Virus record (IMG/VR): IMGVR_UViG_3300050821_005171
Location: 1 to 64,000 of that record
Reading direction: 5' to 3' (one strand)
Source of the DNA: a virus
Length of the DNA stretch: 64,000 bases
The notes below the pieces were generated by a model. That model was not told the DNA's origin. It saw only the letters and a program-made list of their open reading frames with translations, and did not search any database. Positions 21,477 to 54,168 of the stretch are shown in pieces. The translations under genes were made by a program, and so were the position numbers. Position 1 is the first letter of the stretch; each line of letters starts with the position of its first letter.

Positions 21477-21950
21477 CTAATTGTTGCCCTGCTTAACAAC
21501 ATCGTTGCGGCGATTGACCTTGTAGGTCAGCATGCCCTGGTAAATCCCGTCACCTGCGTACCCTGGCGCTCGGCAGATGTGCTCACCGGTGCGGCGACAG
21601 AGCAGCGAGTACCCAGTGTTCGTATCGAACTCAAGTTGGGCATCGTCGTAGATCGACTTGAGCTGATCGATGATCAGGCCGCACTGATCCTTGGGGTCGT
21701 TGACGCCGTCCTCTTTGACGTACACGCAAATCTGGAATACGACGTCCTGGAACTCGCCAAAGTACCCGGAATACGAGCCGCTGGACCACCTACGCGAAGC
21801 TGTACTGACGGGGCTGAACACAGCGTAGGGGAATGGCGTGTTAGCCGGAGCCTCTCCGTCCCAGATGCTTCCGGCCACAATCGAGTCGAGCAGATTGTCC
21901 GTCCACAGGCCAACAATCGCCTTGTCGACCTGCGTCGATGACGACGTCAT
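21477..21950 (-). CDS. Tail terminator candidate (DUF3168-like)
   Basis: 157 residues. The sequence pattern (opening helix, PFPYAVFSPV, a central strand VVFQICVYVKE, then a helix DQCGLIIDQLKSIYDD) is like small tail-completion proteins that cap the tube at the head side. It follows the gp10-like gene and a tiny Lys-rich gene, as in HK97/lambda-type order. The start overlaps the stop of the tiny gene (TAATG). Confidence 0.6.
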   Translation of the reverse strand: MTSSSTQVDKAIVGLWTDNLLDSIVAGSIWDGEAPANTPFPYAVFSPVSTASRRWSSGSYSGYFGEFQDVVFQICVYVKEDGVNDPKDQCGLIIDQLKSIYDDAQLEFDTNTGYSLLCRRTGEHICRAPGYAGDGIYQGMLTYKVNRRNDVVKQGNN

Positions 21951-22051
21951 TAAGACTTGGCCTTAGCCTCTTTGCCCTTGGCGACAGATGCCCTGCGGTC
22001 CTTGGGCTTGTTCTTGGGGCGCGCCGGCTTTGGTGTTGATTGCTCTGCCAT
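21950..22051 (-). CDS. 33-residue Lys/Pro-rich small gene
   Basis: Begins MAEQSTPKPARPKNK and ends KGKEAKAKS; nearly half the residues are Lys, Arg or Pro. It starts 3 bases after the gp10-like stop and its TAA overlaps the next ATG (TAATG), which is good evidence that it is translated. A basic peptide like this could bind nucleic acid or an acidic partner; nothing more is known. Confidence 0.55.
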   Translation of the reverse strand: MAEQSTPKPARPKNKPKDRRASVAKGKEAKAKS

Positions 22052-22054
22052 TGG

Positions 22055-22741
22055 TTAAATCTCGTAATCTGGGCCACTGGGAAGATTGGCCGGGAACTGA
22101 GCGCTGACACTCACGGCACCCGGTGCGACACCCTTGCCGAGCGGGGTCGCCATGATCCGCATGATAGCATCCTGCTCTTCGCTCAGGGTACGCCGAAGGA
22201 ACGATCGCTGGAGGATCGGCTTGCGTCTGGCAAATGTTCGGAGCAGATAGAGCCTGCCGGCGATCGTCACGATTCCGGCCCGTCTCATCAAGGCCCTGTT
22301 GCTGTTGCCCTTCTTGATTCGCCTTCCGCCCTTACCGGGACGCCGAACGCTTTCCATGATCCGAGCCGCGTCCGCAGCGCTAATCGGGATCGTCATGGCC
22401 TTCTTCTTAGTGGGCCGCATGTCGGCCCCAGTGGTGCCGACCTCCTGCCACAGCCCATGCGGAGAGTTAGTGCCAACGATGCCCGAGAAGTTCGTTTTGT
22501 CTAACTGGACGAACATTCGCCTAATAATGTCGCCACTGACCGCCCTGGGATAATTTCCCGGGGCCGACGGCGCTTCGACTGGAGACTGCCCCTGGCTGAC
22601 GTTCTCAATCACCTTCGTGCGGAGATGCTCACAGACTCTCTGTACCCGGTTATTGACCTCGGTTTTGAGAGCCCGTGTGAATTTTTCAGCACTCCAGGTG
22701 AACTTTACGTTGCTGATAATTTGCACAGAGACATCCGCCAT
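22055..22741 (-). CDS. HK97 gp10-like neck protein
   Basis: 228 residues. The N-terminal helix (VNNRVQRVCEHLRTKVIENV) followed by PVEAPSAPGNYPRAVSGDIIRRM and VGTNSPHGLWQEVGT matches the gp10/tail-completion family, in which tyrosine or glutamate at this position packs in the neck ring. The C-terminal half is very basic. It overlaps the upstream glycosyltransferase by 37 bases. Confidence 0.75.
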   Translation of the reverse strand: MADVSVQIISNVKFTWSAEKFTRALKTEVNNRVQRVCEHLRTKVIENVSQGQSPVEAPSAPGNYPRAVSGDIIRRMFVQLDKTNFSGIVGTNSPHGLWQEVGTTGADMRPTKKKAMTIPISAADAARIMESVRRPGKGGRRIKKGNSNRALMRRAGIVTIAGRLYLLRTFARRKPILQRSFLRRTLSEEQDAIMRIMATPLGKGVAPGAVSVSAQFPANLPSGPDYEI

Positions 22742-23478
22742 TCCTGATGCACGATCATGTACGGCCTTCCGAATGGATCAACGTAATCGCCCATCGCGTC
22801 CTTGATGGCCTGGACCCCATATCGGACACCCTCTCCGGTCAGACACAGGTCGGATATCGCTGGGTGGTGGACGTTTTTTCCGAATCCGCACTTCCAGGCC
22901 AGGAAGTTGGCCACGGCTTGATCGGTGTATGTTCGCGAGCAGTTGGCCGTATACGTGAGCAGCGTTTCGTAAAACGCGATAAGGTTCCACTTTGAGCCGA
23001 TGTGCGTCCCGCCGTTGACAACATCTCTGGGCAACAAGTCTCGCCAATCGTGCGGCCTGAACTTCTCCTGATCCTCCCTGTTAAATTGCGAATCGGCGTG
23101 CGTCATTCCTTCCGAGACGAGGTGCAGGCCCTTCATGACCGGGATGTCGACCTGAAACGTAACGTCGCACGAGTCCGTGTGAATGACGGTCTCGTACTCG
23201 CACTTACGCATGAAATCGAGCCGGGCCATATAGCAATCCAGCGCAAATCGGTTCGATTCGCGATCTGGAATGACCTTCTTTTCCCGCTTGAGAATGTGGA
23301 CCCCGGCCCCGTTCAGCATCGTCTCGAACCATCCTGGCAGCTCATTGGTGGCGACGACGTGGTCGCAATCCGTCAGGTTTTGGAGCGACTCGACGTAGCG
23401 CTCCAGACCCTCCCGATGACTGTCGCACCAGTGCGAGCCATGTGCTCCGGCCAAGGTGCATTTCCTATTCATCGCCAT
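22705..23478 (-). CDS. Glycosyltransferase-like protein in the neck operon
   Basis: 257 residues. The order HTDSCDVTFQ (a DxD-like metal site, about residue 98-102), NGGTHIGSKWNLIAFYE and DQAVANFLAWKCG is characteristic of GT-A enzymes that transfer to proteins or glycans. It has a GAAATNATTTC element 42 bases upstream and sits between head completion and neck genes, away from the main glycosyltransferase cassette. Virion glycosylation during assembly is a plausible role. Confidence 0.65.
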   Translation of the reverse strand: MAMNRKCTLAGAHGSHWCDSHREGLERYVESLQNLTDCDHVVATNELPGWFETMLNGAGVHILKREKKVIPDRESNRFALDCYMARLDFMRKCEYETVIHTDSCDVTFQVDIPVMKGLHLVSEGMTHADSQFNREDQEKFRPHDWRDLLPRDVVNGGTHIGSKWNLIAFYETLLTYTANCSRTYTDQAVANFLAWKCGFGKNVHHPAISDLCLTGEGVRYGVQAIKDAMGDYVDPFGRPYMIVHQEWRMSLCKLSAT

Positions 23479-23495
23479 GCGCCGGGAGCCTTTTG

Positions 23496-23530
23496 TAGAA
23501 ACGATTTAAGTGCTATTGCGAAATGATTTC
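23496..23530 (-). promoter_or_regulatory. GAAATNATTTC directional element
   Basis: Minus-strand core GAAATCATTTC (23530-23520) followed by GCAATAGCAC, TTAAA and TCGTTTCTAC. It abuts the stop codon of the gene ending at 23531 and lies 42 bases upstream of the glycosyltransferase start. Confidence 0.6.
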
Positions 23531-23773
23531 TCAGGCGTCTCCGAGGTGCGAAACGGAAGTCGGATACCCTTCCCAGGCATGCGGAACTTTCTCGACGATT
23601 CTTCGGTCCAAGTGGGCCTGGGATTTCTTGGGGCTCCCTGGTTCGCAGATTGCGGGCACCTTCACCACCAGTCGGCCCCCTGCGGCCTTGACCTCGATCC
23701 CTTGGGCTCCGTGGTTTTGGAGCATGTGGGCTCGCAGCCTCTGGGCTGCCTGAATCAATCGTTCGTCTATCAT
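23531..23773 (-). CDS. Small protein of the neck operon
   Basis: 80 residues, starting MIDERLIQAAQRLRAHML, then a strand pair GIEVKAAGGRLVVKVPAI. Not recognised. An ATGA overlap with the head completion gene fixes its start and shows coexpression. It could be a small neck or regulatory protein. Confidence 0.6.
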   Translation of the reverse strand: MIDERLIQAAQRLRAHMLQNHGAQGIEVKAAGGRLVVKVPAICEPGSPKKSQAHLDRRIVEKVPHAWEGYPTSVSHLGDA

Positions 23774-24111
23774 TGCTTGGCCAGAATCTCCTGCAATTCG
23801 GCCCTGTACAATCGCTTCAGTTCGTCGAAGCTGCGGCGGCCAACGACCCAGAAAATGCGAGGCTTCGGCCCGAACAGAATCTGGTCCTTGGGCTGCAAGC
23901 TGTAGATGTCCGCAAGGAAGTACATTACGTTGTCGTACTCGACGCTGGCCCTATCGTAAGGGTCGTCGGATGCCGTGTTGATCGGCTGGATTCTGCACTG
24001 CATCGTTCCGAGCGGTTGCCAGCCGCGAATCGCCGCGCCGGTCGCGCCCTTCGTGATGGCTTGCCTGCGAACCGTGACAGTGTGGATCGACGCGAGCGAC
24101 TGAAGGCTCAT
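23770..24111 (-). CDS. Head completion / head-tail adaptor candidate
   Basis: 113 residues from ATG 24111; an upstream extension to 24189 is possible. The beta-barrel type pattern (TVTVRRQAIT, GTMQCRIQPI, VMYFLADI, DQILFGPKPRIFWVVG) ending in a helix is like gp16/gp9-type stopper proteins that close the portal channel. It is the first gene of the leftward tail operon and next to gp10-like and terminator genes, as expected for a neck protein. Confidence 0.6.
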   Translation of the reverse strand: MSLQSLASIHTVTVRRQAITKGATGAAIRGWQPLGTMQCRIQPINTASDDPYDRASVEYDNVMYFLADIYSLQPKDQILFGPKPRIFWVVGRRSFDELKRLYRAELQEILAKQ

Positions 24112-24236: not shown

Positions 24237-24590
24237 ATGAAATTTCTGATCGTTTCGATTGCCGCTCTTGCCTGCCTGCTGCTGGGCACGTCCCAGGTCC
24301 AGGCCCACCATCACCGACATTGTTGCTGCCAGCGCGTGACTGTCTGCGTCGCGGTTCCGGCCTGCCCGTGTGGTGCTGTTTGCAACTGCGGCGCAACGTG
24401 CCCGTGTCCCGGATGTCCAGTGCATCACCCCGAGAACGTCGCTCCGGCGTGCTCAGCACCATCGTGCAATACAGGCCCAGTCGTCGCGACGCCTGCGATC
24501 GTGAAGCCGAAAGTTGTCGCGCCAGTTCCTGAGACGGCAACGCACCACGTCCACCAGAAGCAAAACCCGACCAACCGCACGAGGCACTAA
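24237..24590 (+). CDS. Secreted Cys/His-rich protein
   Basis: 117 residues. A signal peptide (MKFLIVSIAALACLLLGTSQVQA) is followed by HHHRHCCCQR and a region with about 15 Cys in C-x-C and C-x2-C spacing (CPCGAVCNCGATCPCPGC). The tail is Pro/Val-rich. It looks like exported metal-binding or disulfide-rich wall proteins of Planctomycetes. Ribosome site GAGG lies 10 bases before ATG. First gene of the plus-strand island. Confidence 0.7.
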   Translation: MKFLIVSIAALACLLLGTSQVQAHHHRHCCCQRVTVCVAVPACPCGAVCNCGATCPCPGCPVHHPENVAPACSAPSCNTGPVVATPAIVKPKVVAPVPETATHHVHQKQNPTNRTRH

Positions 24591-24705
24591 ACACAAACAG
24601 CGTCACAACTTATCCACTGTAACGCCGAGCTGAACCCGTAACGAATCCACCATCTCTTCGGTGCGGGCCGGCAAGGACAAACAAAAGGACTGGAACCACG
24701 ATGCG

Positions 24706-25044
24706 ATGGACGCAGCAACCAAAGCGCGCCTCTGGATTCTCGCTTCGAGCTTCGCTATCGCAGCGTTCGCCGGGATGGCGGCGTACCTGCGAGTCGCCAA
24801 GTGGGACCGCAGAAAGCTGCCAGAACTGGCAATGGGAGCCGCCTCCGCCCTAGCCAATGGCGGCTGCATCGGCATCATCGCATGTGCTTTCTGCTATTGG
24901 AAATACAACGGCGAACCGGATATGTTCGTCGTGTTCGGGTCAAGTTCCGCCCTCGGGCTTGGCGGATTAGAGATGGTCAACTTCGTACTCAGGATCGTCC
25001 AGCATCACATGACGCTGACGCCGGGCGATCGGGAGAAGAAATGA
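24706..25044 (+). CDS. Holin-like membrane protein, three TM segments
   Basis: 112 residues from ATG 24706 (a GTG at 24661 would add 15). Three hydrophobic helices are visible: LWILASSFAIAAFAGMAAYL, a Gly/Ala-rich GAASALANGGCIGIIACAFCYW and VVFGSSSALGLGGLEMVNFVL, with a charged C-terminus. Size and topology fit class I holins, but no family is recognised. It overlaps the PAS-domain gene (ATGA), so the two are probably translated together. Confidence 0.5.
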   Translation: MDAATKARLWILASSFAIAAFAGMAAYLRVAKWDRRKLPELAMGAASALANGGCIGIIACAFCYWKYNGEPDMFVVFGSSSALGLGGLEMVNFVLRIVQHHMTLTPGDREKK

Positions 25045-25580
25045 TGAGCCCGACGCTTCCCAGAAAGCTGTCTCTGGCCTCGATGGTGCTGTCGGTTACC
25101 ACGGCCATCGGCCTGGGCATCCTGTTCAACGCTCGCGAGAACGACCGCCGCGAGAATCAGGCTGCTGCCAGACTGGCGACCGACGTCAAGAAACAGGCGT
25201 CCGCCCAGGGAAACCTGATTAACACCATCCTATTCGCAACGGACCTCGCGATTGTCACGGTGAGCGATAAGGGCGACATCGTTGGCTGGAATGAGGGGGC
25301 TGTCCGCAAGTTCGGCTATACCCAAGCAGACATGATTGGAAAGTCCCTCGGCACCCTGATGCCGGATGCCCAAAGCGCTGATCGTCACAAGCGGGCGTTT
25401 AACGACCACACAGTAACCGATTGGGTGCGTCGAGGGATTGCAATGGATTGCACAATGCCCACTAAAAGCGGCGGAAAAAGGCACGTCCTGGTATTCGCCT
25501 ACGAAATCGACCAGCCGCCAGCCAAGTTTGCGGCTATCATCCATACCCCGGCGTTCGTGGTGATCAAGGACAAGGGATAG
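25041..25580 (+). CDS. Membrane-anchored PAS-domain protein
   Basis: 179 residues. One N-terminal membrane helix (LASMVLSVTTAIGLGILF) is followed by a short helix and a PAS domain (about 65-170): LAIVTVSDKGDIVGWNEGAVRKFGYTQADMIGKSLGTLM, then RRGIAMDCTMPTKSGGKRHVLVF. No kinase, cyclase or other output domain follows. It is coupled to the holin-like gene by an ATGA overlap. A sensor that modulates its neighbour is an inference; a host-derived remnant is the alternative. Confidence 0.75.
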   Translation: MMSPTLPRKLSLASMVLSVTTAIGLGILFNARENDRRENQAAARLATDVKKQASAQGNLINTILFATDLAIVTVSDKGDIVGWNEGAVRKFGYTQADMIGKSLGTLMPDAQSADRHKRAFNDHTVTDWVRRGIAMDCTMPTKSGGKRHVLVFAYEIDQPPAKFAAIIHTPAFVVIKDKG

Positions 25581-25601
25581 TGGAAGCGGCGGGCCACATG
25601 A

Positions 25602-26099
25602 ATGAAGAACGAAGACGGCGGTTGGACCATCCGGACGCTGCGTAAGTTTTCCATCCAGCAGATCAGAAACCTTGAGAAATATGTTGCGAGGCGGTTCAAG
25701 GACCTTGAGAAGCGGCTCGACCAACGGTGGTCTTCTGACCAGACAGCGATCAGTAAGGTCAATGAAATCCGGCAAGTAGTGAGTGACCTCGGGAACCGAA
25801 TCGAGAGAATGGTCAGTCGCGACGAGATGAATACTCGCATCACCTCGGTGGAAAGCCTGCTCAAAGAAGCGGCGAACACCGCGAAGGCGGCCACGGACGG
25901 CCATTTCTCAATTAACCGGGAGAAGATTGAAAAGAATGAGGCCGCTCTCGGGGCACTGTCGAAGGATGTCACTGAGCTTAAAACCAAGAGCGGCACCGTT
26001 GAGACGGGTTCGCAAAAGATATGGGAGCGAGCCGGTGTAATTATCAGCTTGGCAGTCGCCATAGCCGCGCTGGTGTCGGCATTCTGGAATAGGAAGTGA
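25602..26099 (+). CDS. Coiled-coil protein with C-terminal membrane anchor
   Basis: 165 residues: basic N-terminus, long heptad-like coiled coil (about 15-130) and a terminal membrane helix (GVIISLAVAIAALVSAFW) ending in NRK. The soluble part most likely faces the cytoplasm or bridges to a partner. Similar tail-anchored coiled coils occur in phage lysis regions. No recognised family. Confidence 0.55.
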   Translation: MKNEDGGWTIRTLRKFSIQQIRNLEKYVARRFKDLEKRLDQRWSSDQTAISKVNEIRQVVSDLGNRIERMVSRDEMNTRITSVESLLKEAANTAKAATDGHFSINREKIEKNEAALGALSKDVTELKTKSGTVETGSQKIWERAGVIISLAVAIAALVSAFWNRK

Positions 26100-26103
26100 A
26101 CCC

Positions 26104-26313
26104 ATGAAGGCCGCCACTAAAAATACCCCAGAAATTCAGGAAGCCAGGGCGGTCATCGTGATGCTACTTAACGACCCGCACGGCAACTTCGGCAGCTTGC
26201 AAGTCGTCAGGGAATGCGCGAAGGGCGGCTGCCATCCTCGCGATTGCGAGAATGCTCGTCGGGTGCTCCGCGTCCTCGGGGAGAGCTGGGAAGAAGAATT
26301 GGAGGAGCGATAG
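26104..26313 (+). CDS. Small hypothetical protein
   Basis: 69 residues, mixed helix, with VRECAKGGCHPRDCEN (three Cys and a His that could bind zinc). Starts 4 bases after the previous gene and is followed by a GTG start with GGAGGAG upstream. Not recognised. Confidence 0.5.
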   Translation: MKAATKNTPEIQEARAVIVMLLNDPHGNFGSLQVVRECAKGGCHPRDCENARRVLRVLGESWEEELEER

Positions 26314-26315
26314 CA

Positions 26316-26651
26316 GTGCCGGAATGGATCAGCGGACCTTGGGGAAAGTTTCTCGCATTCATCGCCACGTCGATCGTTTCCGGCGCTGTGGCAGCCGGAA
26401 CCACGGCGGTTCATTTCTACTACGAGACGAAACAGCAAATCGCGGTTCTCAAAGAGCAGATGACTGAAGTGCAGAACCGATTAGAGCTGAGAGTCGCCGC
26501 CAACGAGCGCAAGAGCCTGAAACACGAAGTTCAGATCGCATCGGTTGTCAGGAAGCAGGACCAGATATTCGGCAAAGAAGCCCCGGTGGGCGACGCGATG
26601 CCTCAATTTTCTCCGGTCTCGCCGCCAGCTCCCAGTAAAGGACCGCAATGA
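26316..26651 (+). CDS. Membrane-anchored coiled-coil protein (spanin-like)
   Basis: 111 residues. One membrane helix (WGKFLAFIATSIVSGAVAAGTTAVHF) is followed by a coiled coil (YETKQQIAVLKEQMTEVQNRLELRV) and a Pro-rich end. This is the build of an inner-membrane spanin, though the partner lipoprotein is not identified. The start is GTG at 26316, 5 bases after GGAGGAG of the upstream coding end. Its stop overlaps the next ATG. Confidence 0.5.
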   Translation: MPEWISGPWGKFLAFIATSIVSGAVAAGTTAVHFYYETKQQIAVLKEQMTEVQNRLELRVAANERKSLKHEVQIASVVRKQDQIFGKEAPVGDAMPQFSPVSPPAPSKGPQ

Positions 26652-27073
26652 ACACTGACGACACGACCAAGGCCGCCAACAAAATCGTGGCCTGGATTGG
26701 CGCGAACAAGACCCACGTCTTCGCCGTCGCCGGGGCAGCCCTAGCCGGGGCAGGCTACTTCCTCAAGATTCTGTCCTGGGAGCAGGCGGTCGCCGTCGCC
26801 ACCGCGTGCGGAGGGTTCTCGTGGTTGCAGAACATCACAAACACCCAAACTAAACAGATCAAAGAGGCAACCGGAGACCAAACCGAGCACCTAAACCTTG
26901 CGGCCGACCTGCGCGCCGATCACATCAACGAAGTGTCAGAAACTGCGGCAGCCGCAGCGGTTACCGCCATCCGACCGGACGTCCACGAGGAAGCGGCCCA
27001 CACAAAGATCAAGCAGGCGGTTGCTAAAAAGGTCACCAAACCGCATGCTCGCAAATATCACGAACATCCGTAA
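26648..27073 (+). CDS. Holin-like membrane protein
   Basis: 141 residues. A hydrophobic region HVFAVAGAALAGAGYFLKI and a second weaker one (AVAVATACGGFSWL) are followed by a charged, Ala-rich, His-rich C-terminal half. Size and order fit a two-helix holin; it could equally be another membrane partner. ATGA overlap with the spanin-like gene indicates coupling. Confidence 0.5.
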   Translation: MNTDDTTKAANKIVAWIGANKTHVFAVAGAALAGAGYFLKILSWEQAVAVATACGGFSWLQNITNTQTKQIKEATGDQTEHLNLAADLRADHINEVSETAAAAAVTAIRPDVHEEAAHTKIKQAVAKKVTKPHARKYHEHP

Positions 27074-27101
27074 CCGAACCACTAATTTTTAGGAAAGAAA
27101 A

Positions 27102-27566
27102 ATGTCCGGACCTGTTGGAGCGACCGTTATTGTCAATCCCACCACCTACAAGGAAATGCTGGCTCGCAACGAGTCAGTGTTCCTGAAACAGCACCATTTT
27201 TTCACCAGCGGAATTTTTGCCAGCCATTGGTTCCCGCTCGACAGCGAGGCCCAGTTTGACAGCCTGCATAAGTACGCTGCCAATGCCCTCGCCGCTCAGG
27301 GTTCCGTGGACTGGACGACTGTGGGACGCCCTGGCAATCTTCAGGTGGCCAATCCGCTCAGGGCCAAAGTCCTAGCGGCCGTCATCGCCGGAGAGTACCC
27401 GGGACAGGAAACTGTTTCGGTGCTTTTGTCCGACGCCTTTGAGCTGGTAATCGCGCTTTATCTCGGCGCAGTTCAGACCCAGCTTGCCACGGGCAACTAT
27501 GGGACCACGCCAGATCAGCAGTATGCCCAGGTCCAACTGTGGCAGAACCAAGCGAACGCGGCGTAG
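27102..27566 (+). CDS. Hypothetical protein of the lysis region
   Basis: 154 residues, soluble. It has YKEMLARNESVFLKQHHFF, FDSLHKYAANALAAQGSVDWT and a C-terminal amphipathic helix. The pattern Y-x2-ML..FLK then F..(L/W)H..A..A(L/I)A..(V/L)(D/N)WT recurs in the gene at 28306, so the two may be distant paralogues. AGGAAAG precedes the ATG by 5 bases. Function unknown. Confidence 0.55.
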   Translation: MSGPVGATVIVNPTTYKEMLARNESVFLKQHHFFTSGIFASHWFPLDSEAQFDSLHKYAANALAAQGSVDWTTVGRPGNLQVANPLRAKVLAAVIAGEYPGQETVSVLLSDAFELVIALYLGAVQTQLATGNYGTTPDQQYAQVQLWQNQANAA

Positions 27567-27611
27567 TTTCGGGAGCCCTCATTTTCAGGAATCACGATCG
27601 GCCGCAATTTA

Positions 27612-28097
27612 ATGCCCCGGACAATCCAATGTCTGCCCATGTTCCTGTTGGTGCTAATGCCAATGACTTCTCCGGCACTAGCAGGACAGGGCCGGCAGGA
27701 GATCGTGATTGAAGTCAATCACAACAGGACCGCAGTCTGCAATTGGATCGAGCTTAAGCACCGGCTTGTCGAGGAGAGCACCGGGGCCAAGGTGGTAGCG
27801 ATCGACTACAGCACAGTGATCTTCTCGAAGGAAACTAAATACGGACTAGAGGTGTTCAATCTCCGCAGGTATGGAAGCCTCGGAGATTACCGGGGAAGGT
27901 TCACTTCTAGCCTTCGTGGCAACCTGAGAGACTTCGGATATCGAATTGTCGTCAGCCCGATCTCTGACACTAAAAGCGAAATCCGAATCTTGATGATCGC
28001 CACCTGTGAAGAAACCAGCTCGGTGGCAGTGAATATCGAGCTGCGTAAGTCATTGCGTTTGATGCGAGAGTTTTTGACGCAACATCTTGTGAATTGA
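27612..28097 (+). CDS. Secreted hypothetical protein
   Basis: 161 residues with a signal peptide (MFLLVLMPMTSPALAG after a short N-tail). The mature part is mixed alpha/beta with IVIEVNHNRTAVCNWIELKH and a final helix. Two Cys could form a disulfide. No family recognised. Exported to the periplasm or cell surface if the signal works. Confidence 0.55.
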   Translation: MPRTIQCLPMFLLVLMPMTSPALAGQGRQEIVIEVNHNRTAVCNWIELKHRLVEESTGAKVVAIDYSTVIFSKETKYGLEVFNLRRYGSLGDYRGRFTSSLRGNLRDFGYRIVVSPISDTKSEIRILMIATCEETSSVAVNIELRKSLRLMREFLTQHLVN

Positions 28098-28105
28098 GGT
28101 GTGAG

Positions 28106-28285
28106 ATGCCAAAGGGAATTCTGTTCTGGGTGCTCATGTTGCTGACCCTGATCTTTGGCGTTTTTTGGAACTATCGCGTTCCGGCCGGGCAGCAGCCGAA
28201 CTATGGCGTGCTCGGAATGAACCTGCTCAACTGGGTGCTTCTGGCGCTTCTCGGTTGGGCGGTGTTCGGCTTTGCAATTCAATAG
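28106..28285 (+). CDS. Small two-helix membrane protein
   Basis: 59 residues: two membrane helices, ILFWVLMLLTLIFGVFW and LLNWVLLALLGWAVFGFAI, joined by a short polar loop containing NYRVPAGQQP. GAGGTGTGAG precedes the ATG. It may be a holin, antiholin or membrane accessory protein. Confidence 0.55.
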   Translation: MPKGILFWVLMLLTLIFGVFWNYRVPAGQQPNYGVLGMNLLNWVLLALLGWAVFGFAIQ

Positions 28286-28305
28286 CCACGAGCCCGGACC
28301 TGACG

Positions 28306-28830
28306 ATGAAGTCGTATATCGCTATGCTCCAGCAGACCAAGCCCGAATACCTGAAGCACAATGCGCATTGGTGGAACCTCGGGACCCCCAACTATGGCCA
28401 GCTTGGGGATGAGCACACGTTCAACCGTTGGCACTCTGCCGCAACTCAGGCAATCGCTAAGTATGTGGCGCAGGGACATTCGCTCAACTGGACGCCGGGC
28501 CTGACGTCCTATTGCGCGGCCCTCGTGGGAGTCAAGGGTGACACCAACGCTCTGGGCGACCATACCGCATACGGATTGACGCCGAATGAGTGGAAGATCA
28601 TTGAGTTGGCCTTTGAAGCGATTGTCACGATCGCCATTGTCTTGCTTTTTCCGCCGCTAGGAATCATCGCCGGATTCGTTGCCGAGGCGGCCTGGATCAT
28701 TTGTAAATTCCTGGTGGCGTTAATCATCGCAAATCTGGCCATCGATGTTCTAAGCGGCGCCTATGGGGTCGGCGGTCAAGATTACTCGTCCCAGCTCACA
28801 TCGTGGGCGCAAGAGGCCCCTGCTGTATGA
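28306..28830 (+). CDS. Membrane protein, possible paralogue of the 27102 gene
   Basis: 174 residues. The first half (YIAMLQQTKPEYLKHN, FNRWHSAATQAIAKYV, SLNWTPGL) parallels the gene at 27102. The second half differs: a long hydrophobic pair (IVTIAIVLLFPPLGIIAGFVAEAAWIICKFLVALIIANLA) predicts two membrane helices. Its stop overlaps the next ATG. Function unknown. Confidence 0.5.
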   Translation: MKSYIAMLQQTKPEYLKHNAHWWNLGTPNYGQLGDEHTFNRWHSAATQAIAKYVAQGHSLNWTPGLTSYCAALVGVKGDTNALGDHTAYGLTPNEWKIIELAFEAIVTIAIVLLFPPLGIIAGFVAEAAWIICKFLVALIIANLAIDVLSGAYGVGGQDYSSQLTSWAQEAPAV

Positions 28831-29222
28831 GCAAGCTCGCAACAGTCGTGTTCGTCGCCGCCGTCTGCATCACCATCGTCCACCTTCGTTCAGGGAACCT
28901 CTCCGATCCAGTCCCGGGCCCAGCCCCGATAGTCACAAACAGCCAGGGCGGATTGGCACTCAAGAAGTTCGGCCAGGACGCTGCCAAGGCTTATTTTGAG
29001 CTGGAACGACGCACCAAGTTGCCCAAGGGCGACCCGCAAAAGTTCAAGAGCTTCGGTGAGCAGAAGTCTTTCCTGAAAGCCCAGGGAGCCGTTGCAGACG
29101 AGGACGCTTTCGGCCCTCTCGCCGACCGACTCTCTAAGGCGATGGGCGAAAAATACGACGAGGACAAGCTGGCTGCTGAAGAGCACAAAATCGGCCAGGA
29201 GCTGCTTGATGCCAGCAAGTAG
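28827..29222 (+). CDS. Membrane-anchored or exported helical protein
   Basis: 131 residues. The N-terminal hydrophobic segment (LATVVFVAAVCITIVHL) acts as signal or anchor; the Cys inside it does not make a good lipobox. The rest is charged and helical. Coupled to the upstream gene by ATGA and overlapping the next by 14 bases. Confidence 0.5.
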   Translation: MSKLATVVFVAAVCITIVHLRSGNLSDPVPGPAPIVTNSQGGLALKKFGQDAAKAYFELERRTKLPKGDPQKFKSFGEQKSFLKAQGAVADEDAFGPLADRLSKAMGEKYDEDKLAAEEHKIGQELLDASK

Positions 29223-29430
29223 CGGCACGCCATTCGGCAAAGTACGACTGCTTATCAAGAAGGCCAAAGAGACTCCGGATGGCGCTCACGAGAAATACGT
29301 GGCACTGGCACAACTGAGAACGATAGCGGCGGCACTGATCGAGGCCGCTCCGCACGATGCCCTGATCGAGTTTTGTGAGTTCCTCTGCAAATACAGAGAG
29401 CGAATGGATGCTGCAAATACTGCTCGCTGA
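29209..29430 (+). CDS. Small hypothetical protein
   Basis: 73 residues, soluble and helical, with KVRLLIKKAKETPDG and a C-terminal LIEFCEFLCKYRERM. Start at ATG 29209 overlaps the previous gene by 14 bases; an earlier in-frame start would overlap far more. Not recognised. Confidence 0.5.
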   Translation: MPASSGTPFGKVRLLIKKAKETPDGAHEKYVALAQLRTIAAALIEAAPHDALIEFCEFLCKYRERMDAANTAR

Positions 29431-29863
29431 CGTCACGATCCCGATCCACTGGCCCGCTGGCGGCATTCTTAACCAGCACACGATCACGATCATGCTCTTG
29501 GGCGGAGCGGCGGCGTGGGGCGTCCTGGCGATCCACAATGCGTTTGGGCACGGCAAGAGCTTATTGGAGTCCATCACGCTCGGGATCGTGTCGGCCGAGT
29601 CGCTGCTCGAAGCTGCGTCGAAGGTTTGGCCGGCGGCCAAGGGCGGCGCCACAGAAGCCGAGAGGGATGCGGCTATTGCGTTGCGAGTGTTGCAGATTCT
29701 TGAGCAGCAACGGCAGCAGCCCGACGCTCCCCCTGGACCAGATCAGAAAATACTCCCTAAGCCTTCCCCAGCACCGGACCCCGGCCCGCTCAACCCTCCG
29801 GCAGTGACCCCACAACACGCCGCGTATCTGGCCAATCAAGCTGCACATCAAACCGTCCTGTGA
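29408..29863 (+). CDS. Membrane protein with Pro-rich tail
   Basis: 151 residues. Hydrophobic N-terminal half (TITIMLLGGAAAWGVLAIH) followed by a helical middle and a Pro-rich tail (PPGPDQKILPKPSPAPDPGPL). ATG 29408 overlaps the previous gene by 23 bases. It directly precedes the papain-like protease and may anchor or export a partner; inferred from position only. Confidence 0.5.
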   Translation: MLQILLADVTIPIHWPAGGILNQHTITIMLLGGAAAWGVLAIHNAFGHGKSLLESITLGIVSAESLLEAASKVWPAAKGGATEAERDAAIALRVLQILEQQRQQPDAPPGPDQKILPKPSPAPDPGPLNPPAVTPQHAAYLANQAAHQTVL

Positions 29864-29872
29864 GGTGATGTC

Positions 29873-30721
29873 TTGGCGCGAACTGACTTCTACCTGGGCT
29901 GGAACAAGGACCAGGAGCGGCGTGATCTGCTGTGGAAGAACCACACGCCGTTCGACTGGACGCGACTGAGGGCCGCATCGCCGCTGCCCGAGTTCGATCC
30001 GAGGCCGGTGCTCGCTCCACCAAAAGATCAGATGCAGACTTCGGAATGCGTGGCCTTCAGCGGGGCACTCCTTGGGGAATTGCTGAATTGGATCAAGACG
30101 CAGGGAGCGCTTATCCGATTCTCTGAGCCTCACCGCTACATTACTTCGCAAGAAAGGTCACAGCCACCAACAACAGGAAGCGATGACGGAGCCCTGATCC
30201 AAGGCTCGATTGATTCGATGCGCATGGATGGATTCGCGCTTTCAGAGACGATGCCATTCACTGGGTCTTACGTGCCCCAAGTGACACAAGCAGCGAGGGA
30301 TCAGGGACTACTTCACAAGATCAACAACTACGCCCATATTGATGGATATAATTCCGCCTTTACGTGGCTGTCTCTCGGCATTGGATGCATCCAAATTGGA
30401 ATTCCTGTCTGCGATTCTTTTATGCAGCTCACAGGCAAGGATTGCATCCTCGACGAAAGCGGATTCAAGGGATCGGTAAAGGGCGGACACGCCCTGGCAA
30501 TCATTGGATATGTTGCACGCAAGGACGCACAAGGGCGAAACTACCTGATCCTCCAAAATTCATGGGCAAGTGTCTGGGGTGACCAAGGATGCTGCCTAGT
30601 CGATCCAGCTACATTTGACCGCATTTGCAAGTCCCAAAAGTGCGAGGTCTGGGGGATCACCGATCTCACATCGTATGAAGATGCTTCAGGAAGGCTCGAT
30701 TTCTCGGGGTTTCACATCTAG
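29873..30721 (+). CDS. Papain-like (C1-type) cysteine protease
   Basis: 282 residues. The catalytic set is complete: oxyanion Gln53 and nucleophile Cys59 (DQMQTSECVAFS, spacing of six as in papain), His206 (GGHALAIIGY) and Asn229 (LILQNSWASVWGDQG). There is no signal peptide and only a short N-terminal segment before Cys59, so a pro-inhibitor domain is lacking. The start is TTG 29873, with GAGG 8 bases upstream. Between membrane genes and a lipase, it is a candidate lysis or wall-degrading enzyme; prohead maturation or defence roles are less likely. Confidence 0.85.
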   Translation: MARTDFYLGWNKDQERRDLLWKNHTPFDWTRLRAASPLPEFDPRPVLAPPKDQMQTSECVAFSGALLGELLNWIKTQGALIRFSEPHRYITSQERSQPPTTGSDDGALIQGSIDSMRMDGFALSETMPFTGSYVPQVTQAARDQGLLHKINNYAHIDGYNSAFTWLSLGIGCIQIGIPVCDSFMQLTGKDCILDESGFKGSVKGGHALAIIGYVARKDAQGRNYLILQNSWASVWGDQGCCLVDPATFDRICKSQKCEVWGITDLTSYEDASGRLDFSGFHI

Positions 30722-30730
30722 GCCAAAAAC

Positions 30731-30764
30731 GAAGAGCAGGAGCGTTTCTACCGCCCTGCTCTTC
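30731..30764. terminator. Hairpin after the protease gene
   Basis: GAAGAGCAGG (30731-30740) and CCTGCTCTTC (30755-30764) form a 10-bp perfect stem just after the protease stop. There is no T-run on the plus side; the minus side shows CGTTTTTGG. It may protect the 3' end or act as a weak bidirectional terminator. Confidence 0.4.
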
Positions 30765-30789
30765 CTGGACACCGAAAGGATTGTTTTCG

Positions 30790-31269
30790 ATGCCATTACA
30801 GAGGAATCGTATCCCACTTGCAGTCAGGTTCAAAAGGCACATCAGCGAACGGCTTCCGAACGGATGCATTTTATGGATAGGAACAGTTAACAGCCGAGGA
30901 TACGGATCGATCAATAACGGCTACGGAAAGATGCTCTATGCGCACCGCGTCGCCTGGGAACTGGCGAATGGCCCAATTCCGGCTGGACTTTTCGCCTGCC
31001 ATCGCTGCGATGTCCGACGCTGCGTGAATCCCGAGCATCTATTCCTTGGAACAGTCTCCGACAACCAAGCAGATATGGTTGCCAAGGGACGCAGCAACAG
31101 GGGCGAGAGGCACGGAAATGTCAGAGTCACCGAGCCGATCGTCCGAGAAATTCGGGCCAAATACGCGGCAGGCGGAATCACGATGGTCGAGCTTGCTATA
31201 GAGTATGGCGTTTGCAGAACGAACATCCTTCATATCGTGAACAGAAAATCCTGGAAACACGTAACCTGA
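30790..31269 (+). CDS. HNH endonuclease with C-terminal HTH
   Basis: 159 residues. HNH_3 core: AHRVAWELANGPIPAGLFACHRCDVRRCVNPEHLFLGT, with the second His of the HNH replaced by C-H in FACHRCD. The C-terminal part (VREIRAKYAAGGITMVELAIEYGVCRTNILHIVNRKSW) is a helix-turn-helix of the type found in homing nucleases. AAAGGA precedes ATG 30790. Its stop overlaps the lipase ATG (TGATG), suggesting insertion or coupling between the protease and lipase genes. Confidence 0.8.
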   Translation: MPLQRNRIPLAVRFKRHISERLPNGCILWIGTVNSRGYGSINNGYGKMLYAHRVAWELANGPIPAGLFACHRCDVRRCVNPEHLFLGTVSDNQADMVAKGRSNRGERHGNVRVTEPIVREIRAKYAAGGITMVELAIEYGVCRTNILHIVNRKSWKHVT

Positions 31270-32138
31270 TGTCCGCTCCGATCGACTGCATAGACTGTCG
31301 CCTGCTCCACGCCTGCTGCGTGATCGAGCGGATCGACTACGGCGCATCCAGCATCAATTGGACGGTGCCACCAGTCGACTTCTACGACAAGTCTGGCGAT
31401 GACGGCTGCCTGATCGGCTGCATCCCAGAAGGCGTCGTCGTGGCGTTTCGGGGGACCGAAGCGCCCAACGATTCGTCGGTTCCAGTTAAGCAGAGGCTGC
31501 TCGATTGGTGCTCAGATTTCGAGGCCAACCTTCGGCCGATGGGTACGCTGCCAGGGCTCGTTCACAACGGCTATGCCTCATCGCTTGAGGAACTGTGGCC
31601 GCAGATTGAAGCGAAGCTGATGGAGCTGCTGTCGCCAGGCGCGACAGTCTTCCTCACTGGACATTCAAAAGGCGGCGGAATGGCCGTTCTGGCAGCAGCA
31701 CGCCTCCACATGGAGTGCAGCCACTGGGCAACCGGCATGATCGATGTTGCGACATTCGCGTCCCCAAGGGCCGGAAACGACACGTTTGCCGCAGAGTTCA
31801 ACAAGGCTTTCCCTGCGTGCCGACGCTACGAATTTGGAAACGACCTAGTCGTGCATTTACCACCACACAGCAACGTCATGGCCCTCCTGAATATGTACGT
31901 TGGGGACTTTTCTCGCTGGATTGACGTCGATTACCAGTCGGTCGGCGAGCTAATCTACATAGCTAAAGATGGTGTGCCGGTCTTCAACACCCAGAGCGTC
32001 CGTGGAGAATGGCTGGCAGCCGAACGATTGGCCGGGATTACCGAAATGCTGGCCACCCTTAACTTTGAACAGATCGTGACAAATCACAGAATCGACGCGG
32101 GTTCCGGCTACATGAGAGGGGTTTGCCGAAATGAATAA
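31269..32138 (+). CDS. Class 3 lipase-like alpha/beta hydrolase
   Basis: 289 residues. VVVAFRGTE (57-64) provides the oxyanion strand, GHSKGG (131-136) holds nucleophile Ser133, and FASPRAGN followed by NDLVVHLPP gives the Asp192-type acid; the catalytic His is probably near residue 200. This is the lipase_3 family. No signal peptide. It follows the protease and HNH and is overlapped by the thioredoxin-fold gene. Likely substrate is acyl glycerol or another lipid; a membrane-damage role in lysis is an inference. Confidence 0.8.
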   Translation: MSAPIDCIDCRLLHACCVIERIDYGASSINWTVPPVDFYDKSGDDGCLIGCIPEGVVVAFRGTEAPNDSSVPVKQRLLDWCSDFEANLRPMGTLPGLVHNGYASSLEELWPQIEAKLMELLSPGATVFLTGHSKGGGMAVLAAARLHMECSHWATGMIDVATFASPRAGNDTFAAEFNKAFPACRRYEFGNDLVVHLPPHSNVMALLNMYVGDFSRWIDVDYQSVGELIYIAKDGVPVFNTQSVRGEWLAAERLAGITEMLATLNFEQIVTNHRIDAGSGYMRGVCRNE

Positions 32139-33429
32139 GACAGGAGTTCTTCTCGTCTGCGGAGTGCTCGCACTCGGCTATTGTCTGTTTTCCAAACCAA
32201 CCGAACAACCAGCCTCGGCCAGCCAAAGTGCGACCCCTGAGCAACAGGCTCAACCACAACCCAGCACATTCGACAAATTCATCGCCGATTGGCGCCCTGA
32301 ACATCGCGAGGAAACAAAAGCGCTCGGCCCGGTGAAAGACGCACCCAAAGAGCCGGAGGTCACGCTGCCTAAAGTGCAGGAACTGATCGAAAAGGCCGTC
32401 AAAGAGAAGGCCCAAGAAGACAAGCCTGTGATGCAGGTGATCCCGCAGGCAGAGCCGAAACCACACCATTCAGCGGCCACGAGAAAGATGAGCCGATCCG
32501 AGAGGCTCCTGCACGTTCCGGATGATCCGGCGCCTTCGGCATTTAAACTCACGGTGCTTGAAAAACGCGACATTCCCGTTGGATTCACCGGACCGGTGAT
32601 CTACTCGGCAAGTTGGTGTGAATGGTGCCCAGTTGAAAAACGGGACGTCAGGGCGGCCGGATATGCTTCCAAGTTCCGGATGGTCGAGTTGCGCAGTGAG
32701 TCCGAAGCCAAGTCCCGTCACATGGAAGAGTTGCCGGTCACAGTGTTCTTCCGGAATGGCATAGAGGTCGAGCGAACGACCGGCTACGACGGAACGCAGA
32801 AGCGACTCAACACGATTCTTCGCCACACGGACGCTCTATTCCGGGAAGCGTCATACACTCCACCGCCGGCACCTGGCGTCAAAGGTGACGCCCTCGATGA
32901 CGATCCTGTCGCTCCCGTCCAGCAACCATCATGCTCGACTCCCAAAGCTGCGCCACTGTCAGCCCCGCTTTGTTCGAGCCCGGCAAGCAGCATAGCTGCT
33001 TCGTGCTCGGCCCCTGCAACGACGTACACCGAAGTCCGTTCGTGCGCGACCCCTGACCACCCGGTTCTAGGCTATGTGGCCAACTCGGCTTCGTGTTCAA
33101 GCCCGTCCAGCAGCTACGCCTATGCCGCACCGTCGTGCTCCAGCCCGTCGAGCGTCGCCTATGCTTCGGCACCGGTCACGTATTCGTACGCGCTTCCGAC
33201 CTACAGTTATGCGGCTCCGAGTTGCAGCAGCCCGAGCTATTCGTATGGAGGCGGGAACTGTGGATCGCCCGGAGGTGGCGGTGGTGACGTGCTTGGATAC
33301 GGAGGAGGCTGGGGAAGAAATTACGGCTACTCGCCGAGCTACGGATATGGCGGTGGTTACGGAGGCGGATGGGGTGGCGGAGCATATGCCGGGAATTGTC
33401 CCGGAGGCGTCTGTTATCCTCGCTGGTAA
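32131..33429 (+). CDS. Exported thioredoxin-fold protein with Cys/Ser/Tyr/Gly-rich tail
   Basis: 432 residues: a hydrophobic N-terminal signal/anchor (GVLLVCGVLALGYCLF), a Pro/Glu-rich spacer, a thioredoxin-like domain (about 135-235) with CEWC at 163-166 in VIYSASWCEWCPVEKRDV and a cis-Pro LPVTVFF, then 180 residues of CSSPSSS, SYAYA and Gly-rich GYGGGW repeats. The tail resembles planctomycete surface proteins. It could form or reduce disulfides in a Cys-rich wall. ATG overlaps the lipase end by 8 bases. Confidence 0.75.
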   Translation: MNKTGVLLVCGVLALGYCLFSKPTEQPASASQSATPEQQAQPQPSTFDKFIADWRPEHREETKALGPVKDAPKEPEVTLPKVQELIEKAVKEKAQEDKPVMQVIPQAEPKPHHSAATRKMSRSERLLHVPDDPAPSAFKLTVLEKRDIPVGFTGPVIYSASWCEWCPVEKRDVRAAGYASKFRMVELRSESEAKSRHMEELPVTVFFRNGIEVERTTGYDGTQKRLNTILRHTDALFREASYTPPPAPGVKGDALDDDPVAPVQQPSCSTPKAAPLSAPLCSSPASSIAASCSAPATTYTEVRSCATPDHPVLGYVANSASCSSPSSSYAYAAPSCSSPSSVAYASAPVTYSYALPTYSYAAPSCSSPSYSYGGGNCGSPGGGGGDVLGYGGGWGRNYGYSPSYGYGGGYGGGWGGGAYAGNCPGGVCYPRW

Positions 33430-33902: not shown

Positions 33903-34262
33903 ATGAAGCTGTTTCTCGTTCAACTGCTGGCCGAGGTGGCAATTCTGATCGGGATGGCCGATACCTCCCAGGGCCAGGACTACGTCTACCGGGTTGTTCG
34001 TCCGGCGCGTCCCGCCAAAGTGAAGGTCTACGCAACTTACCCATCCTACGGTTACGTCGCACCGGTCGTTTCGGCCCCGGTGGCTGCGTCCTACAGCTAT
34101 GCCTATCCAGCGGCCTACGGCTACTCCTACGCGGCTCCGGTTGCTTACCCGGGCACTTATGGGTACTACGGGTACGGAACGCCAGCCTGGGGCTCGTATG
34201 GAGCTTGGGCCGCTCCTCCAGCATCCAGAGGAGTGGGTTTCAACATCGGGTTTAGCTGGTAA
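33903..34262 (+). CDS. Secreted Tyr/Ala/Pro-rich protein
   Basis: 119 residues. Signal peptide (MKLFLVQLLAEVAILIGMADTSQG) then a low-complexity mature part of YGYVAPVVSAPVAASYSYAYPAAYGYSYAAP type. Proteins of this composition are common in Planctomycetes and rare elsewhere. AAAGGACCC lies upstream of ATG. Possibly interacts with the host surface or mimics it; function unknown. Confidence 0.6.
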   Translation: MKLFLVQLLAEVAILIGMADTSQGQDYVYRVVRPARPAKVKVYATYPSYGYVAPVVSAPVAASYSYAYPAAYGYSYAAPVAYPGTYGYYGYGTPAWGSYGAWAAPPASRGVGFNIGFSW

Positions 34263-41347: not shown

Positions 41348-42004
41348 ATGGATCGTCATGGGCTCAGTGAGCGGCCGGCAAAGATGCGTGGCCTGAAGGT
41401 TGACGAGCGGGGATACCCAGTCCCCTGGTTCGTTGCCGAGATCGACGGCAAGCCGGACTTTCGGGTGATGAACCCAGTCCGGTTCGTGAAGGCGATCAGT
41501 CAGAACCTGTGTTGGATTTGCGGCAATCTCATGGGCACCCAGAAGACGTTCGTCGCCGGACCGATGTGCGGCATCAACCGCACCAGCGCTGAGCCGCCGT
41601 GCCACTTGGAGTGTGCTCGCTACGCCGCGATCAACTGTCCGTTCCTCAACAACCCAAATGCGCTGCGTCGCGAAGATGACTTCACCAGGAACACGCTCGA
41701 AACACTGGGCGGCATCTCGATCCCACGCAATCCCGGAGTCGTCATGCTCTGGCAGACTAGGACTTGCTTCCCATTCGATGATGGCAACGGCAAGCCGCTG
41801 ATCTGCATGGGCGAGCCGTTCAATGTCGAGTGGTATCGAGAGAGTCGGCTTGCGACGCGAGAGGAGGTGATCGAGTCGGTAGAAAGCGGCTTTCCGGCGC
41901 TGGCGGCCATCGCCAGAACAGAGCCGGGTGCCATGCAGGACCTGCTGGACGCGCGTAAGCAGTTCGAGAAGTATCTTCCGGCTGCTACATCACCCAGCCA
42001 TTGA
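41348..42004 (+). CDS. Conserved Cys-rich phage protein
   Basis: 218 residues from ATG 41348 after AAGGTGA. LCWICGNLMG and FVAGPMCGINRTSAEPPCHLECARYAAINCPFL form a distinctive Cys/His cluster (about 55-100) that I recall from uncharacterised phage and actinobacterial proteins. Likely a metal-binding enzyme or processing factor. Single gene behind a GAAATNATTTC element, convergent with the head-tail connector gene (20-base overlap). Confidence 0.65.
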   Translation: MDRHGLSERPAKMRGLKVDERGYPVPWFVAEIDGKPDFRVMNPVRFVKAISQNLCWICGNLMGTQKTFVAGPMCGINRTSAEPPCHLECARYAAINCPFLNNPNALRREDDFTRNTLETLGGISIPRNPGVVMLWQTRTCFPFDDGNGKPLICMGEPFNVEWYRESRLATREEVIESVESGFPALAAIARTEPGAMQDLLDARKQFEKYLPAATSPSH

Positions 42005-42794
42005 TCCGCTTGAAGCGGCTTAGGTATCCGGAGGCTCTTGGCGGGATGAACGGGTTGTCAATCACACCCTTGGCATCCGTGGCTTGTGGATAGCCGTACC
42101 CGATCGAGTAGTCGCCTAAACGCTCAGAGTTAATCCGGCCGCCCTGAGACATCGCAATCGGGTCCAGGCCACTGTTTCCGGAGATCGCGTTCACCACGGC
42201 CCAATTTGCTTGGATCGTCAACAAGGTTCCAAGCCTGATGTCGCTTGCATCAAGCCGGTAGTCCTCGACGTCGCCCCGAAGCTCACGATCGGTGTAGCCT
42301 GCGACGTAAACCACCTTGATCGATCCGACTTCGGCATTCCAGGCCCAGTTGATCCGCACCAACTGGCCGGTGGAACTGAACCCATCGAACTCGACGTCCA
42401 GGTAATAGTCGGTGCCCAGCACCAAGTCATCAGTGACCGGGAACCCAAGCGGGTTCTGTCCTGAACGCCCCGAGCGGTCCGTACAGACGCTTACGATCGA
42501 ACGGACGGGCAACTCTGAGAGTTGCAGGATCGTGCCACTGTCGGCGATGTGGTAGGGCGACAAATAGCTCCGAATCTGGTCCCGCATGTCGGCCGGGTTG
42601 GCCATCTTGGGCAGATATTCGGTGTACTGCGATTGGATAATGCCCGATAGCAGCTCGGCGCGGATCGCACGCTCGCAGGAGCCCTTAACGGCTTGCAGGA
42701 TGCCCATCTGGTGATCGGTCGCAGTGGTGGCCATCCCGCAGAACGAGACGCACTCAGCGAACGTCACGAGTTCCTTGATGGACTGGGCGGACAT
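41985..42794 (-). CDS. Head-tail connector (gp6-like)
   Basis: 269 residues. VVYVAGYTDRELRGDVEDYRLDASDIRLGTLLTIQANWAVVNA is the hallmark helix region of gp6-like connector proteins that ring the portal; the front half contains the strand pattern of that family (LVRINWAWNAE). ATG 42794 with AGAAGG upstream. It ends the leftward head operon, whereas the next neck genes lie 18 kb away. Confidence 0.65.
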   Translation of the reverse strand: MSAQSIKELVTFAECVSFCGMATTATDHQMGILQAVKGSCERAIRAELLSGIIQSQYTEYLPKMANPADMRDQIRSYLSPYHIADSGTILQLSELPVRSIVSVCTDRSGRSGQNPLGFPVTDDLVLGTDYYLDVEFDGFSSTGQLVRINWAWNAEVGSIKVVYVAGYTDRELRGDVEDYRLDASDIRLGTLLTIQANWAVVNAISGNSGLDPIAMSQGGRINSERLGDYSIGYGYPQATDAKGVIDNPFIPPRASGYLSRFKRINGWVM

Positions 42795-54139: not shown

Positions 54140-54168
54140 ATTGTGGCACATTGTGAGCACAAATGCAA
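54140..54168 (-). promoter_or_regulatory. Leftward promoter with GTGCTNACAAYGTGC site
   Basis: On the minus strand TTGCAT (54168-54163), 17-base spacer and CACAAT (54145-54140), with GTGCTCACAATGTGC at 54160-54146. It fires toward the RHH/methyltransferase/portal genes with a long leader of about 190 bases. The terminase ATG (54163) lies inside its -35 box on the other strand. Confidence 0.6.

What the first reader, a model, noticed from the sequence alone, without database searches (positions are those of the whole stretch)
24706..33429. Possible lysis cassette built on a papain-like protease and a lipase
I find holin-like and spanin-like membrane proteins, a complete papain-type protease and a class 3 lipase, but no lysozyme, amidase or transglycosylase anywhere in the window. 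Planctomycete walls are rich in crosslinked protein over a thin or unusual peptidoglycan, so a protease plus lipase would be a sensible lysis route. A thioredoxin-fold exported protein next door could open disulfides.
Basis: inference. Interest (0 to 1): 0.7.

Follow-up and report, generated by a model that had tools for sequence, protein, structure and literature searches.

The report
Phage protease–lipase cassette without recognisable endolysin
An uncultured phage carries a tight operon of membrane proteins, a papain-type protease, a lipase and an exported thioredoxin-like protein but no recognisable wall-cutting enzyme; the protease belongs to a phage peptidase family that in other phages sits beside the holin in the lysis cassette, so a role in bursting the host is plausible but unproven.

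Summary
The sequence features are real. 29873-30721 encodes a C1 (papain) peptidase with an intact Gln/Cys/His/Asn set; 31269-32138 a class 3 lipase with Ser/Asp/His; 32131-33429 an exported protein with a weak thioredoxin match. They end a tightly packed + strand operon from 24661 in which 13 of 18 proteins have a hydrophobic segment (shuffled mean 4). Holin calls are weak; a spanin is suggested by topology only. No peptidoglycan hydrolase was found in the window or the rest of the 78.7 kb record, which may be incomplete.

New evidence: the protease falls in PHROG 16701, whose members lie directly beside the holin in annotated lysis cassettes of five cultured actinophage lineages (Gordonia, Arthrobacter), in two of them with lipolytic lysin B. 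A conventional wall enzyme is always present there, and other lineages carry the protease far from lysis genes.

The whole block (24.2-42.0 kb) is an antisense insertion between head-completion and connector genes that are adjacent in two relatives. That also fits an accessory or lysogenic-conversion island.

An envelope-attack role is the best single reading (0.4); lysis by protease plus lipase alone is not excluded (0.15). The planctomycete host is unproven, and published planctomycete sacculi are lysozyme-sensitive.

The parts
24237..24590 (+). first ORF of the block: short exported Cys/His/Pro-rich protein (signal-like N terminus)
   Evidence: hydrophobic segment 3-21; sequence
24661..25044 (+). 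holin candidate, 127 aa, 2-3 TM
   Evidence: phrog_785 holin E 0.0045 over residues 20-114; PF16083 13.2 bits, below cut-off
25041..25580 (+). membrane-anchored PAS-domain protein
   Evidence: PF13426 E 5.9e-8, PF00989 E 1.4e-7; N-terminal TM
25602..26099 (+). coiled coil plus C-terminal TM, XhlA-like topology
   Evidence: phrog_937 hemolysin E 0.0064; TM 144-162
26316..26651 (+). N-terminal TM plus coil, inner-membrane-spanin-like topology only
   Evidence: no family above cut-off
26648..27073 (+). small membrane protein
   Evidence: no family above cut-off
27102..27566 (+). unknown protein, possibly a distant paralogue of 28306-28830
   Evidence: local alignment score 58 against shuffled maximum 57
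27612..28097 (+). exported protein with signal-like N terminus, unknown
   Evidence: no Pfam hit
28106..28285 (+). 59 aa, two TM segments, small holin-like protein
28306..28830 (+). membrane protein with two C-terminal TM segments
   Evidence: no family
28827..29222 (+). signal-anchored protein, unknown
29408..29863 (+). membrane protein, stop 9 nt before the protease start
29873..30721 (+). C1 (papain-type) peptidase, no signal peptide, no pro-domain recognised; Q53 C59 H206 N229
   Evidence: PF00112 E 8.7e-13; phrog_16701 E 3.5e-9; actinophage-family HMM E 1.1e-10; hhalign E 8.7e-26 between the two families; residues
30790..31269 (+). HNH endonuclease gene between protease and lipase, probably a homing insert
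   Evidence: PF13392 E 1e-15 in the set that holds it; assigned by inspection of the sequence
31269..32138 (+). class 3 lipase, no signal peptide; Ser (GHSKG), Asp (GNDLV), His (NHRID)
   Evidence: PF01764 E 2.6e-21; phrog_21992 E 3.4e-12; PDB lipases E 7.8e-9
32131..33429 (+). exported protein: N-terminal TM or signal, thioredoxin-like domain with CEWC, long Cys/Ser/Gly/Tyr-rich tail
   Evidence: PDB thioredoxins E 0.0045; CEWC at residue 163, 10 Cys in the tail; Pfam silent
41985..42794 (-). head-completion gene, right border of the antisense block
   Evidence: homologues in L003 and L031, E 3.7e-36 and 3e-32; head-tail adaptor phrog_442 in its set
23770..24111 (-). connector gene, left border of the block
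   Evidence: homologue in L031 directly after the head-completion gene, E 1.5e-10

Best explanation
The 24.66-33.43 kb operon is an envelope-attack (lysis-type) module. Membrane proteins, among them a probable holin, open or mark the inner membrane; a holin-dependent papain-family peptidase of PHROG 16701 and a class 3 lipase, neither with a signal peptide, then reach the envelope and cut proteins and lipids; an exported thioredoxin-like protein may reduce disulfides. Shown: gene content, intact catalytic residues, operon packing, membership of the protease in a family that lies next to holins in other phages. Inferred: timing, export through a holin, the substrates, and any role in lysis. Whether this module works alone or together with an unrecognised or missing wall hydrolase is left open.
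For: Same peptidase family as proteases directly beside the holin in five actinophage lineages (hhalign E 8.7e-26; HMM hit in this record E 1.1e-10). Lipolytic lysin B in two of those cassettes. Operon packing with overlapping or near-overlapping genes. Excess of membrane and exported proteins. Weak holin and XhlA matches. No other recognisable lysis enzyme in 78.7 kb. Relative L007 combines a PHROG 16701 protease, small membrane proteins and an exported trypsin-like protease in its head-tail region, on the strand of the late genes.
Against: The block is antisense to the late genes and absent at that site in L003 and L031. It holds more membrane and exported proteins than a lysis cassette needs, including a PAS-domain protein. 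Holin and spanin calls are weak. Proteases of this kind in Streptomyces, Mycobacterium, Xanthomonas, Stenotrophomonas and Burkholderia phages are not near annotated lysis genes. No functional study of these proteases was found.
Confidence: 0.4

Rival explanations
1. Accessory or lysogenic-conversion island: the antisense + strand block is expressed from its own promoter, perhaps in the lysogen, and its membrane and exported proteins, PAS protein, lipase, protease and thioredoxin-like protein change the host surface or secretome.
For: Antisense insertion absent at that site in L003 and L031; many exported or membrane proteins; PAS domain; class II glutamine amidotransferase at the far end; serine recombinase genes suggest a temperate phage; variable gene content at the equivalent region of L007 and L003.
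Against: Protease and lipase carry no signal peptide, unlike typical secreted conversion enzymes; the protease family sits beside holins elsewhere; no consensus promoter was found at the left edge, which is not informative for an unknown host.
Confidence: 0.3
2. Accessory to a conventional lysis system: the phage has a canonical endolysin that is too diverged to be recognised or lies outside the record, and the protease and lipase only help, as in Gordonia phages.
For: Every actinophage lysis cassette seen with this protease also holds lysin A or a metallo-endopeptidase. The record is linear and may be incomplete. An exported 517 aa protein at contig 67787-69340 looks like a glycoside hydrolase by eye.
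Against: Profile searches for seven wall-hydrolase families gave nothing at E 1 while controls rang; the 517 aa protein matches nothing.
Confidence: 0.2
3. Intracellular enzymes of takeover or counter-defence: the protease degrades host proteins in the cytoplasm and is not a lysis enzyme.
For: No signal peptide; family members in several phages lie among nucleotide-metabolism or unknown genes.
Against: Position among membrane proteins, 9 nt after one of them; five lineages beside holins.
Confidence: 0.1

Closest known systems
PHROG 16701 'cysteine protease/peptidase' of Gordonia phages Aleemily, Lilbeanie, GMA2, Sixama and Arthrobacter phage Mufasa8
   Same: C1-type peptidase family; next to membrane proteins; lipolytic enzyme in the same cassette in Aleemily and Lilbeanie
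   Different: There lysin A or a metallo-endopeptidase is present and the genes follow the tail genes on the same strand; here no endolysin is seen and the block is antisense to the late genes
Mycobacteriophage/Gordonia phage lysin A - holin - lysin B cassette
   Same: Holin plus a lipid-cutting enzyme
   Different: Lysin B is a mycolate-cleaving esterase (general knowledge; reviewed in PMC6116114, seen here as title and abstract only); the enzyme here is a class 3 lipase and the wall cutter is missing
Bacterial C1 family peptidases (Priestia, Microvirga, Leptospira, Deinococcus plasmids) and PDB 3ois, Lpg2622
   Same: Same C1 family and catalytic set
   Different: 24-33% identity to the plasmid proteins; those are not in phage operons
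Class 3 lipases of Cylindrospermopsis phages
   Same: Lipase_3 in a phage genome
   Different: Lies next to a dCTP deaminase gene, not in a lysis-like operon

Membership tests
Peptidase family C1 / PHROG 16701 | significant profile match over the catalytic core | tested here: met
   PF00112 E 8.7e-13 above cut-off; phrog_16701 E 3.5e-9; hhalign E 8.7e-26
Peptidase family C1 / PHROG 16701 | Gln, Cys, His, Asn in order with papain spacing | tested here: met
   Q53 C59 H206 N229. In relative L007 the Asn position is not conserved (YCWTDAWG)
Peptidase family C1 / PHROG 16701 | proteolytic activity | not testable with these tools
   needs expression; the structure model had pLDDT 28 and was not used
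Class 3 lipase | GxSxG nucleophile with Asp and His | tested here: met
Canonical holin-endolysin-spanin cassette | peptidoglycan hydrolase | tested here: not met
   over the held 78.7 kb only
Canonical holin-endolysin-spanin cassette | holin | tested here: inconclusive
   phrog_785 E 0.0045; PF16083 below cut-off
Canonical holin-endolysin-spanin cassette | spanin pair with outer-membrane lipoprotein | tested here: inconclusive
   inner-spanin-like topology only at 26316-26651; no lipobox protein noticed by eye
Canonical holin-endolysin-spanin cassette | late expression with the virion genes | not testable with these tools
   antisense to late genes; no expression data
Thioredoxin fold | CxxC and cis-Pro in a thioredoxin-like domain | tested here: inconclusive
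   CEWC at 163, LPVT at 201; PDB thioredoxins E 0.0045; TIGR01068 E 0.024; Pfam silent

The most novel reading that the evidence does not exclude
The phage lyses its host without any dedicated peptidoglycan hydrolase, by a holin-released papain-type protease and lipase with an exported thioredoxin-like protein, that is, by taking apart the protein and lipid parts of the envelope.
Probability: 0.15. Interest if true: 0.85.

Novelty: new variant of a known kind. Interest (0 to 1): 0.45.

Why it matters
Double-stranded DNA phages are expected to break the wall with a peptidoglycan hydrolase. A phage with a protease-lipase module and no recognisable hydrolase would test whether that step can be replaced. 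Independently, I found no tested function for the proteases that sit beside holins in cultured Gordonia and Arthrobacter phages, and they can be deleted in laboratory phages now.

Tried and rejected
Relatives of the protease and lipase in IMG/VR: none found; exact peptide patterns find only close relatives. Prophages with this capsid in bacterial genomes: none, so the host stays open. An attempt to reach planctomycete genomes through an Isosphaera plasmid gene failed. Structure models of the protease (pLDDT 28) and of the 517 aa exported protein (pLDDT 36) were too poor to use, and no fold search was made. The 517 aa protein as a hidden cellulase-type enzyme: not confirmed. DUF1353 in L007 was considered as a possible lipid-cutting enzyme because of its HDWLY motif, but its PHROG is named tail assembly chaperone, so this was dropped. 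BetterKatz gp29 (PMC4982276) is called cysteine protease-like and an endolysin; whether it belongs to PHROG 16701 was not tested. The protease being a CHAP or NlpC/P60 wall hydrolase was rejected: it matches C1 and not those families.
Full report
What is there. The window is 64 kb of a 78.7 kb virus record; the remaining 14.7 kb was read as L002. It is a tailed phage: terminase large subunit at 54163-55923 (+; weak tblastn matches to phage terminases), portal fused to a Mu F-like domain 49702-52329 (-), head maturation protease 48823-49698, capsid protein 45093-46598, head completion 41985-42794, connector genes 21477-24111, tape measure and tail genes to the left, and ERF, RusA, sigma factor, CsrA, DNA methylase and serine recombinase genes.

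The observation. In the + strand operon 24661-33429, the protease and the lipase are both complete. The protease has Q53, C59, H206 and N229; the lipase has its Ser, Asp and His motifs. The last gene encodes an exported protein whose middle part matches thioredoxins weakly. Genes are packed with gaps from -23 to 68 nt; the protease starts 9 nt after a membrane protein gene, and an HNH gene sits between protease and lipase. By a simple hydropathy rule 13 of 18 operon proteins have a hydrophobic segment, against a mean of 4.0 and a maximum of 8 in shuffled sequences; the count includes one segment inside the protease that is probably not a membrane span. Holin support is a near full-length but weak match at 24661-25044 and an XhlA-like match at 25602-26099 that may be no more than a coiled coil. 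A spanin is suggested by topology alone.

The missing endolysin. Six-frame searches for seven wall-hydrolase families over the whole record and three relatives gave nothing at E 1, with positive controls in each case. This does not exclude a new fold or a gene beyond the ends of the record.

What the protease is related to. The relative L007 (IMGVR_UViG_3300037484_000448; capsid 54% identical) has a papain-like protein at 14053-14706. That protein has matches in 44 cultured or named phage records. In Gordonia phages Aleemily, Lilbeanie, GMA2 and Sixama the order is lysin, lysin, hypothetical (or putative lysin), cysteine protease, holin, followed by membrane or hypothetical proteins, with lysin B closing the cassette in Aleemily and Lilbeanie; in Arthrobacter phage Mufasa8 it is holin, metallo-endopeptidase, hypothetical, holin, peptidase. 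In Streptomyces BillNye and Shaeky, Mycobacterium CRB2, Xanthomonas XacN1, Stenotrophomonas RAS14 and the metagenomic GX15bay it is not near annotated lysis genes. The window protease belongs to the same PHROG family 16701 as L007 and Aleemily (E 3.5e-9, 1.5e-43 and 1.6e-64), its family profile aligns with theirs at E 8.7e-26, and a profile of theirs finds it in this record at E 1.1e-10. Being immediately next to a holin gene in five of about eleven lineages is well above what random placement among roughly 60-650 genes would give, but the Gordonia lineages may share the arrangement by descent or exchange, so I give no probability. The family profile matches C1 peptidases of known structure, so these are C1-type enzymes; the substrate is unknown.

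Where the block sits. In L031 the homologues of the head-completion gene (window 41985-42794), the connector gene (23770-24111) and the gp17-like gene (21477-21950) follow each other within 1.9 kb; in L003 the same stretch is 2.1 kb, with the connector gene there recognised by position and by eye rather than by BLAST (ORFs). In the window the first two are 17.9 kb apart and the + strand block, antisense to both, fills the gap. In L007 a different insert of about 13 kb, on the strand of the late genes, lies slightly upstream and includes the protease, small membrane proteins and an exported trypsin-like protein. The region is thus a variable island in this phage group.

Interpretation. The combination of a protease family known beside holins, a lipase, membrane proteins and no visible endolysin makes an envelope-attack module the best single reading, at about 0.4. 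The antisense position, the absence in relatives, the PAS protein and the surplus of exported proteins make a conversion or accessory island a strong rival at 0.3. In every lysis cassette where this protease was seen a conventional wall enzyme is present, so an accessory role beside an unseen endolysin is also likely. A phrase search of the held papers found nothing on planctomycete phages.

Shown: sequences, motifs, family membership, gene order, synteny break, absence of known hydrolase families in the held record. Inferred: holin function, timing, export, substrates, lysis.

Noticed in passing
L002:7787-9340 (-), contig 67787-69340: Exported 517 aa protein that looks like a glycoside hydrolase by eye (ENENP, TEYG motifs) but matches nothing in Pfam, PHROGs, PDB, phages or plasmids.
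   Followed up: partly
window 3239-4225, 6123-7064, 7175-8164, 8149-8874, 8832-9563, 22705-23478; L002:6542-7462: Up to seven glycosyltransferase-like genes; Pfam group 1 glycosyltransferase families matched two proteins of the left-hand gene set, the rest are by eye.
   Followed up: no
window 25041-25580: A PAS domain behind a single N-terminal membrane segment in a phage operon of membrane proteins.
   Followed up: no
window 32131-33429, 33903-34262; L013:1559-1876: Exported proteins with Cys/Ser/Gly/Tyr- or Pro/Tyr-rich tails recur in this phage and in L007.
   Followed up: no
window 40453-41286: Class II glutamine amidotransferase about 40% identical to plasmid-borne bacterial genes.
   Followed up: partly
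L013:3969-5483: Relative L007 encodes an exported trypsin-like protease with a collagen-like tail (PF13365 E 2.5e-13).
   Followed up: partly
window 9809-15463: 1884 aa protein with recurring beta-rich units of roughly 80-90 aa by eye, likely a tail fibre; not analysed as repeats.
   Followed up: no
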